Source of the DNA: Liolophura sinensis
Taxonomy: Eukaryota; Mollusca; Polyplacophora; Chitonida; Chitonidae
Length of the DNA stretch: 64,000 nt
Direction of reading: 5' to 3'
NCBI RefSeq assembly: GCF_032854445.1
Contig: NC_088301.1
Coordinates: forward strand, 11,406,281-11,470,280
In this document: piece by piece, positions 30,601 to 34,893 of the stretch
How the letters are laid out: every line of letters starts with the position of its first letter
Position numbering within the stretch: the stretch's first letter is position 1
Translations under genes and position numbers: made by a program
Notes under the pieces: generated by a model
What the model saw: only the letters and a program-made list of their open reading frames with translations
Database searches by the model: none
Told to the model about the DNA's origin: nothing

Positions 30601-33600
30601 GAAGGTATCTTATGATGTGTACATAAATTGATTGATGTGTTCTGCAGTACTTGAGTATATATTTCATTAGTGATGGCGGTAAGGTTTAGGACTGGAGATA
30701 ATCAGGGAGTTTATAATACCACTATCTTTCATACATTACCTGTTTGTGAGTAAGTGTTTTATATGTACATGCGTAGTATGAGACTTATGCTATTTTTTAA
30801 CGACAATACCTTATATTTTTGTTCTTAAGACTTGCATATTACAAGCATATGGTTCCATGGACCAGCGTTGGCAACATGCTGTCTGCAATCAGTGAATATT
30901 AATAGTAGTATGTAAAAAAGGACAAATATTCCAGAAGAATGGAAAAACATTTTTTTTAATTCATGAAAATCTTTGTTTTTTTCTCACCTGTCAGAGGCCT
31001 GGTTTTCTGTCACACCAGAGAAGATTGCAGAACACTTGGCAGAGAGATGTCAGTGTGACCTGGTGGTTGATGCCTTTTGTGGGGTTGGTGGAAACACCAT
31101 ACAGTTTGCCTTCACGTGTGAACGAGGTAAGTTAAAGCTGTGATGTAGAATATGGTGTGAAAACTATTTCATAAGCTACAGATAATTTTTTTTGTCAGTG
31201 GGAGTAGGGTACTTCCGACTTTGAAAGAGAGGGAGTACTTTTCTTCCGACTTTCCAAGTACGCTGTACCGCAGAACACATTTTTCTTTTCAAATACTCAA
31301 CACTTCACTGTTTTGAGTCACTAGTAACACACCTGGAAAGTGTGATGTTGATTAAGTGAAAGTGGATGTGTACATGTGAACACATATATACACAGGCCGA
31401 CATGTACAGAGATTCTTTCCGTTGTAGTTATATAGGACTAACCGGTATACAATAGAAGTAGGCCATTTAGGCTGCAAGAAGAATGAATTTGAATGAAGTT
31501 AATACATTTATTTCGCGTCAAGCTGTGTGAGGTTTATTTCAATAACTCACTTACTGACAATTTTATTCTGAACTTTTCATTCCTTCTGATTTGAAAGTAG
31601 GGGCTGCAGTATTATTATTTTTTATGGTAACCAGCCTGATGTGACAGGTAACTTTTCTTTTCCCTGTCTAAACATTTCTTGGCCCGTACTAGCTTGTTAA
31701 CAACTGCCGTCTTTGGGTCAAAAGATGATAAAACGGTGGTTGATATAGGCTAAATCCAAATGTAGGACCAACATCAGAAGACAAGAATTTTTCTTCTGTG
31801 CTTTAATTATTGGGAGTATATAGTATAAATCTGAAGTGTTTCTGTGCATAAGTTGTTAGCTGTTCTCAGATATTTTTTATTCCACTGCATCAGCTTCTCT
31901 CTTTACAAAACCATGAGTACATGTATACATCAGGAACTTGCCCCTCGACGATACTCGACCGTCGATACAGAGTGACAGTTCGTGTGGAATTGAAATCAGA
32001 CATTTGGGTTGCAATATTAGGCTGATTTTGTGCAGTGTAGAAGCAGAACCAAAAAGAGCATTTTAACCTTCATGGCAAACACTCGAAAATGTCACAAGAC
32101 AAATATCACGGTAGGCATTCTCCACGGCTGTGGGTGGTGTCTCAGGGGCTTTGCTGTAGCCTACAGTGTCTGAAAAGGAACACATGATGGAGAACATCGA
32201 GTGCATGGTTCGTAGTGTAGATTTACTTCTGATTTAAACAGGACTGTTCGCATTAAATGTCGGATGTACGCTACCTTTCGGGAAAGGTACATTTGTCTGT
32301 AGCACTGATTATGCTGGTCACTGTCGTATAAGTGAAATATTCTTGTGTACGCCGTAAAACGCCAATCAAATAAATAAATAAATAAGTAAACATTTGACCT
32401 ATTTGAATTTGACTGGTCAGAATCAAATGTAATGGTTGATGGATTTCCCCTGTGGGTTGGGCTGGGGTTTGAACTTAGATCTACACAGCCAAAGTCCACC
32501 AACTCCCTTTTTACTAGCATCCTACCAACAAAGTTAATGGGACATTCTTACCAGCATAAGTGATCTTAAAATGTTATCTTTCCTCCCACCGTAATGCCGG
32601 CTGCAATCGTATAAGCAAAATATTCTTGTGTATGGCGTAAAAAACCAATTAGATTTAAAATTAATATATAATAAAATATTATCAGTAGAAAACTAACAAC
32701 AAAAAGTGACAAGTCTTGGCACTGTTTTGAACTCTAAATAAGTATTATATTACCATGTTGTTGTTGTAGTGATTGCCATTGACCTTGACCCTGTGAAGCT
32801 GTCCCATGCTCGTCACAATGCGGAGGTTTACGGTGTGGCAGATCGGGTTGAGTTCATCCAGGGGGATTTTCTGGAGCTGGCTCCCAGTCTTCAGGCAGAC
32901 GTTGTCTTTTTGTCCCCACCCTGGGGGGGTCCTGCCTATCTCGACTCTGAGGTGTTTGACTTGGACACCATGATCCCACTGAATGGATATCCTTTGTTAC
33001 TTCTTAGCTGTGGTTACTTCCACCTTGAATAGCCTTTACCGTTATTTTGAAGTGATAGTAAGCTTGTAATAACAAGAAGTTATTAAGGTCTATATCAGAA
33101 CACATTTAGGGGTGCAATTCATGCACGGAACAAAAAATTGATTGCAATTGCATCAAATCAAATAAAAACCAATGAAAAAAATAAATATGCACTGGTTAAT
33201 GACGATGTACAAGCCATTGAGCAGTGAGCTGATATAGTGCAGCTTTTCAAACGTAAGTTTGAGGGGGTTGTTGTGTTCACCGATAAACCTACATGCTACT
33301 GCTGTTCCGTACATTTTACATCCTGCAGCTGAAATGCCAATCAGATAGAAGTACGCCATTGCATTATATGATAGTTTACGTGTCTGTACTTCTTCATGTC
33401 TGCCAGCTGGGAAAAGGGTGTGATGTTACACAAAATACACAGTGCTCAACTGAGGAATTATGGCAAACAATTTTTTGTGTTTATGTTGTACAAGTGTGCT
33501 TGAACCTCAGCTCGCTGCACCTGTCTTAGCACTGTGGCAAAAGCGGTTGCTTTTGAAAGCAAGCTCTCAGCTTTTCAGGGCAGTTCATCAGGGTCAGAGT

Positions 33601-34893: not shown

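What the first reader, a model, noticed from the sequence alone, without database searches (positions are those of the whole stretch)
32987..33824. TGS1 carries a minor-class U12 AT-AC intron
The 5' border ATATCCTTT, the TCCTTAAC branch site about 10 bases before the end, and the terminal AC all fit U12 AT-AC introns. Only this splice keeps the TGS1 protein alignment through PLNGSRIFRL. AT-AC introns are rare. TGS1 modifies caps of spliceosomal snRNAs, and U11, U12 and U4atac carry such caps, so a dependency loop is conceivable: minor spliceosome to TGS1 to the caps of minor snRNAs.
Basis: partly seen in the sequence, partly recalled or inferred. Interest (0 to 1): 0.72.

Follow-up and report, generated by a model that had tools for sequence, protein, structure and literature searches.

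The report
Minor-class intron in cap-methylating gene TGS1
An animal gene for the enzyme that finishes the caps of splicing RNAs appears to carry one intron of the rare type removed by the minor spliceosome, so making this enzyme may depend on some of the very RNAs it modifies; such introns are known in many genes, but this host gene makes the dependence worth testing.

Summary
A nine-exon TGS1 model lies at 24571-34893 (+), 973 codons; its seventh intron (32987-33824, 838 nt, phase 2) is AT-AC. It has the published U12 signature: ATATCCTT at +1 to +8, TCCTTAAC ending 9 nt before the 3' end, terminal AC. Of 68 donor-acceptor pairs tested around the borders, 16 stay open and this one aligns best with the solved TGS1 domain, without a gap at the junction. 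The same genome has matches to U11, U12, U4atac, U6atac and the CCDC84/CENATAC family; its U12 pairs with the branch site, its U6atac and U11 with the 5' site. Retention would bring a stop at 33030-33032 and remove the last 65 residues. No RNA evidence and no other animal TGS1 gene could be examined. The dependency loop is reasonable inference, with a published parallel in INTS7/INTS10, but untested. New member of a known kind, in an unusually apt host gene.

The parts
24571..24680 (+). TGS1 exon 1 (coding part, from ATG)
   Evidence: gene model by open frame
25267..25486 (+). TGS1 exon 2
   Evidence: gene model, GT-AG borders
25867..27271 (+). TGS1 exon 3
   Evidence: gene model, GT-AG borders
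28177..28252 (+). TGS1 exon 4
   Evidence: gene model, GT-AG borders
29887..30449 (+). TGS1 exon 5
   Evidence: gene model, GT-AG borders; its end is in the 3gdh alignment
30995..31126 (+). TGS1 exon 6, start of the cap methyltransferase domain
32770..32986 (+). TGS1 exon 7, ends within a codon (phase 2) at ..AAT GG
32987..33824 (+). U12-type AT-AC intron, intron 7, 838 nt, phase 2
32987..32995 (+). U12-type 5' splice site ATATCCTTT
   Evidence: complementary to U6atac AAAGGA and U11 AAAGGG of this genome
33030..33032 (+). first in-frame stop if the intron is retained
33808..33815 (+). U12-type branch site TCCTTAAC, 9 nt before the intron end
   Evidence: complementary to GUAAGGA of this genome's U12 with one A left out
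33825..33903 (+). TGS1 exon 8
34774..34893 (+). TGS1 exon 9 with stop codon

Best explanation
Intron 7 of a TGS1 gene found once in this animal genome is a U12-type AT-AC intron. U11 and then U6atac recognise ATATCCTTT, U12 pairs with TCCTTAAC leaving the branch adenosine out, and the minor spliceosome joins 32986 to 33825, restoring the methyltransferase domain. If it fails, the retained intron brings a stop after 922 codons and the last 65 residues are lost, so the transcript is probably non-productive. Since TGS1 trimethylates caps of Sm-class snRNAs, U11, U12 and U4atac among them, TGS1 output is probably coupled positively to minor-spliceosome activity. Shown here: the gene model, the motifs, their complementarity and matches to the machinery genes. 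Inferred: actual splicing, decay of the retained transcript, and any effect on snRNA caps. Most likely the intron is an old one kept by descent; whether it serves as regulation is open. The confidence given is for gene, borders and intron class; I put a measurable coupling at about one half.
For: Nine-exon, 973-codon open model with an AT-AC intron 7. Alignment to the solved TGS1 domain without a gap at the junction. Best of 68 donor-acceptor pairs, 16 of them open. Pfam Methyltransf_15 152.5 bits with this splice, 145.5 with the GT-AG rival. Motifs equal the published ATATCCTT / TCCTTAAC / AC; the two candidate branch adenosines lie 10 and 11 nt upstream of the 3' end. Joint chance about 5e-6. 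U12 (three strong matches), U4atac (1), U6atac (2) and U11 (2) in the same genome; CCDC84/CENATAC family, 4 matches within 7 kb, a factor reported to promote AT-AN introns (abstract and passages of PMC8280824). Pairing: U12 7 Watson-Crick pairs with one A left out, U6atac 6, U11 6 including one G-U.
Against: No RNA reads. No other animal TGS1 gene could be read, so conservation is unknown. A GT-AG pair (exon end 32995, exon start 33840) also keeps the frame. Pairing of this length is not exclusive: by the same count the branch motif makes 6 pairs with another part of U6atac and 5 with U4atac, and the 5' site 5 with U12 and 7 with U4atac if G-U is allowed. One CCDC84 match contains a TAG. TGS1 is not named in a table of 19 Drosophila U12 introns, and no passage that I read reports a minor intron in TGS1. 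The loop rests on inference only.
Confidence: 0.93

Rival explanations
1. The intron is spliced by the major spliceosome with GT-AG ends, exon end 32995 to exon start 33840, giving [15 protein letters not shown], two residues shorter.
For: The pair exists and keeps the frame open (score 624, third of 16). Another GT donor, 32951, scores 0.85 bits, close to the weakest of three other TGS1 donors, and gives open pairs too, but they align far worse (570 and 559).
Against: Donor TTT|GTTACT scores -6.2 bits against 1.2, 7.9 and 7.4 for three other TGS1 donors, with base frequencies that I recalled; it loses IFRL, which the solved TGS1 shares, and 7 bits of the Pfam score; it leaves two full U12 motifs at the right places unexplained.
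Confidence: 0.03
2. An AT-AC intron removed by the major spliceosome, as in some sodium channel genes.
For: AT-AC ends do not by themselves prove U12 dependence; splicing of SCN4A intron 21 requires the major spliceosome (passages of PMC2831892).
Against: The U2-type AT-AC introns of sodium channel genes have G at +5; here +5 is C, and the full U12 branch site is present.
Confidence: 0.02
3. The intron is a passenger of ancient origin with no regulatory effect; TGS1 level does not respond to minor-spliceosome activity. This contests the functional half of the best explanation, not its anatomy, so its confidence does not add to the others.
For: The 2023 survey of over 3000 genomes argues that neutral processes may explain much of minor-intron evolution (title, start of abstract and passages of PMC10639083).
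Against: Minor introns can be retained measurably when the minor spliceosome is impaired, with loss of protein for INTS7 and INTS10; INTS4 and INTS8 proteins did not change, so the effect is not general (passages of PMC9881141).
Confidence: 0.5

Closest known systems
U12-type AT-AC introns of animal genes (for example PHB2, STX6, PROX1, KCMF1 in fly and human; table in PMC2831892)
   Same: Terminal dinucleotides; the 5' splice site and branch site equal the consensus that the paper gives.
   Different: The host gene. TGS1 is not named among the 19 fly introns of that table; I could not check vertebrate lists.
Minor introns in Integrator genes INTS4, INTS7, INTS8, INTS10 (passages of PMC9881141)
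   Same: A gene for snRNA maturation depends on the minor spliceosome; in cells with RNU4ATAC mutations INTS7 and INTS10 introns are retained and 3'-extended snRNAs appear.
   Different: Integrator acts on snRNA 3' ends, TGS1 on caps; the Integrator case has patient RNA and protein data, this one has sequence only.
U11-48K and U11/U12-65K feedback (start of abstract of PMC5473595)
   Same: A circuit between the minor spliceosome and genes it needs.
   Different: That circuit is negative and uses U11 bound to a splicing enhancer; here a constitutive U12 intron would give a positive dependence.
ZRSR2 (CG3294) twintron of Drosophila (section of PMC2831892)
   Same: A minor-splicing factor gene with a U12-type intron option.
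   Different: There a second, U2-type pair of splice sites gives an alternative; here the best-aligning U2 alternative has a very weak donor.

Membership tests
U12-type (minor) intron, AT-AC subtype | 5' splice site ATATCCTT at +1 to +8 | tested here: met
   ATATCCTTT at 32987
U12-type (minor) intron, AT-AC subtype | branch site TCCTTAAC close to the 3' end | tested here: met
   33808-33815, 9 nt before the intron end
U12-type (minor) intron, AT-AC subtype | terminal AC acceptor at a border that keeps the protein in frame | tested here: met
   best of 16 open pairs out of 68
U12-type (minor) intron, AT-AC subtype | minor-spliceosome snRNAs in the same genome, complementary to the motifs | tested here: met
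   U11, U12, U4atac, U6atac matches above their cut-offs; pairing, though not exclusive to the expected partners
U12-type (minor) intron, AT-AC subtype | spliced RNA joined at 32986/33825, sensitive to minor-spliceosome block | not testable with these tools
   no RNA data held; a search for a processed copy of the spliced message found only the gene's own three exons
U12-type (minor) intron, AT-AC subtype | same intron in TGS1 of other animals | not testable with these tools
   own genome has no relatives here; the other genome collections are prokaryotic, plasmid or viral by description
TGS1 (trimethylguanosine synthase) | Methyltransf_15 cap guanine-N2 methyltransferase domain and similarity to solved TGS1 | tested here: met
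   Pfam E 3.2e-45; 3gdh_A E 1.6e-96, 3egi_A E 6.2e-88
Autoregulatory splicing loop | TGS1 output changes with minor-spliceosome activity and TGS1 level changes minor snRNA caps | not testable with these tools
   inference; only the predicted stop on retention was computed

The most novel reading that the evidence does not exclude
TGS1 carries a conserved minor intron that acts as a sensor: falling minor-spliceosome activity causes retention, less TGS1, poorer cap trimethylation and import of Sm-class snRNAs including U11, U12 and U4atac, and so a self-reinforcing loop that couples snRNP maturation to minor splicing.
Probability: 0.12. Interest if true: 0.75.

Novelty: new member of a known kind. 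Interest (0 to 1): 0.4.

Why it matters
If the intron is conserved, TGS1 would join the Integrator genes as a step of snRNA maturation that itself needs the minor spliceosome. That gives a simple testable reason why defects of minor splicing and of snRNP assembly, as in spinal muscular atrophy models, could amplify each other, and a possible selective reason for keeping one minor intron. As anatomy alone it is an ordinary, well-formed minor intron.

Tried and rejected
Rejected: the GT-AG reading with exon end 32995 and exon start 33840 (very weak donor, loses shared residues); the AT-AC reading with exon start 33816, whose AC is the end of the branch motif itself; U2-type AT-AC, because +5 is C. 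A branch-like TCCTTAAC at 25718 lies in intron 2, which starts GTAAGC, so it was not taken as U12.

Led nowhere: one scan of viral contigs for TGS1 relatives; 8 stretches matched a pattern, 1 was confirmed (L008), matching query residues 45-91 only; its other pieces had E 0.83 or worse, so it says nothing about the junction. A search of the own genome for a processed copy that would show the spliced junction found only the three exons of the gene itself. The planned look at INTS10 in this genome did not complete. The structure paper on human TGS1 is not held. Six paper searches for TGS1 or its other names with minor-intron terms listed 1 to 11 papers each, 19 different ones together; I read passages of 5 of the 19, and none of those passages says that TGS1 has a minor intron; the other 14 I saw only in the listing.

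Full report
What is there. The + strand of the window holds a TGS1 gene. Reading exons by open frame gives nine coding exons from 24571 to 34893 and a protein of 973 residues without internal stop. The borders of seven introns were sought as GT-AG and found so; I picked them by eye and enumerated alternatives only for the start of exon 2 (one open choice) and for intron 7. Exons 1 to 4 and most of exon 5 lie outside the domain compared by tools; their likeness to human TGS1 is recalled. Intron 7, 32987-33824, begins with AT and ends with AC. The protein has the cap guanine-N2 methyltransferase domain (Pfam Methyltransf_15, E 3.2e-45), and its last 218 residues match the chains 3gdh_A (E 1.6e-96) and 3egi_A (E 6.2e-88), both named Trimethylguanosine synthase homolog (human by recall). 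The domain and the DNA of exons 7 to 9 were found once in this 609-Mb genome.

The intron. It is 838 nt long, 37% G+C, with stops in all three frames, and interrupts a codon after its second base (phase 2). Published U12 AT-AC introns have ATATCCTT at +1 to +8, TCCTTAAC as branch site and an AC acceptor (passages of PMC2831892). All three are met exactly; the branch motif ends 9 nt before the intron end and its two adenosines lie 10 and 11 nt upstream. The alignment runs through the junction without a gap: [17 protein letters not shown] against SPDGFEIFRLSKKITNN; its only gap, four residues, is elsewhere.

Is it chance? The motifs alone are not rare in 64 kb: 3 donor-like matches against 1.56 expected (24 of 100 shuffles reach 3), and 5 branch-plus-AC matches against 1.08 (1 of 100 shuffles reaches 5; three of the five lie close together on the minus strand). 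Their joint placement is rare. In 40,000 simulated pairs of border stretches, 44 held a donor, 179 a branch with acceptor, 1 both; the product of the two rates is 4.9e-6. The stretches were chosen around the known junction, so this asks how often motifs would fall there, not over the whole window.

Alternatives. I enumerated intron starts at 32942-33021 (GT, GC, AT) and exon starts at 33770-33874 (after AG or AC): 68 allowed pairs, 16 open to the TGS1 stop. The reported pair aligns best (645). Second (632) is the same donor with the AC that ends the branch motif. Third (624) is GT-AG, exon end 32995 and exon start 33840, two residues shorter; its donor scores -6.2 bits against 1.2 to 7.9 for three other TGS1 donors, with recalled frequencies, and its Pfam score is 145.5 against 152.5 bits. 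A GT donor at 32951 scores 0.85 bits, but its two open pairs align far worse (570 and 559).

The machinery. The same genome has U12 (three matches of 127-132 bits and two weak ones, one of them just under the cut-off), U4atac (one, 86.5 bits), U6atac (two, about 100 bits) and U11 (two, 89 and 94 bits). Four matches to the CCDC84/CENATAC family lie within 7 kb of one contig; one of them contains a TAG, so I do not claim an intact gene. CENATAC was reported to promote splicing of AT-AN minor introns in human cells (abstract and passages of PMC8280824). U12 reads GUAAGGA, which pairs with UCCUU-AC of the branch site by seven Watson-Crick pairs, leaving one A out; U6atac AAAGGA pairs with UCCUUU by six; U11 AAAGGG by six including one G-U. 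Runs of this length are not exclusive: the branch motif also makes six pairs with another part of U6atac and five with U4atac, and the 5' site five with U12 and seven with U4atac if G-U is allowed. Two of the three strong U12 copies and U4atac have the Sm-like string AAUUUUUG; the third U12 copy has AAUUUCUUG and both U11 copies AAUUUCUG.

How it most likely works. Shown: anatomy, motifs, complementarity, matches to machinery genes. Inferred: U11 then U6atac bind the 5' site, U12 the branch, and the minor spliceosome joins the exons. If the intron is retained, translation stops at 33030-33032, after 922 codons and 871 nt before the next exon border; 65 residues of the C-terminus are lost, so such RNA is probably non-productive and a likely target of decay. 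TGS1 is recruited by the SMN complex and turns the m7G cap of assembled snRNPs into a trimethyl cap that, with the Sm ring, serves nuclear import (passages of PMC5463183). A positive coupling from minor splicing to TGS1 to the caps of U11, U12 and U4atac is therefore reasonable; it would also touch the major snRNAs.

What is known. Minor introns in genes of snRNA maturation are not new: INTS4, INTS7, INTS8 and INTS10 have them in human, and in cells with U4atac mutations the INTS7 and INTS10 introns are retained, these two proteins fall (INTS4 and INTS8 do not) and 3'-extended snRNAs appear (passages of PMC9881141). That is the same logic at another step. U11-48K and U11/U12-65K have a negative loop by another mechanism (abstract start of PMC5473595). 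The fly ZRSR2 gene has a U12/U2 twintron (section of PMC2831892). [quoted passage not shown] so one AT-AC phase-2 intron in an invertebrate gene is ordinary as such. TGS1 is not named among the 19 fly U12 introns. Six searches of the held papers pairing TGS1 (or NCOA6IP, or trimethylguanosine synthase) with minor-intron terms listed 19 different papers; in the 5 of them of which I read passages none reports a minor intron in TGS1. This does not show that it is unreported: 14 were seen only in the listing, and intron databases and supplementary lists could not be searched.

Limits. There is no RNA evidence and no second animal gene, so neither the splice nor its conservation is demonstrated.

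Verdict. The intron is real by sequence with high confidence and belongs to a known kind. The dependency loop is a fair, testable idea, not a finding.

Noticed in passing
903-1493 (+): Open frame with a sulfotransferase domain (Pfam Sulfotransfer_1, E 5.5e-22), probably an exon of another gene.
   Followed up: partly
43405-43896 (-): Open frame of 164 aa that reads like the end of a non-LTR reverse transcriptase (from memory); no Pfam match at 0.001.
   Followed up: partly
29375-29522 (-): Three similar stretches beginning TCCTTAACAT inside TGS1 intron 4; they mimic U12 branch sites with an AC on the other strand.
   Followed up: no
25718-25738 (+): A TCCTTAAC branch-like motif followed by an AG inside TGS1 intron 2, whose donor is GTAAGC.
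   Followed up: partly
L015 and L016, 1501-1626; L004, 1501-1651: Both U11 copies have AAUUUCUG, and one U12 copy AAUUUCUUG, where other U12 copies and U4atac have the Sm-like string AAUUUUUG.
   Followed up: no
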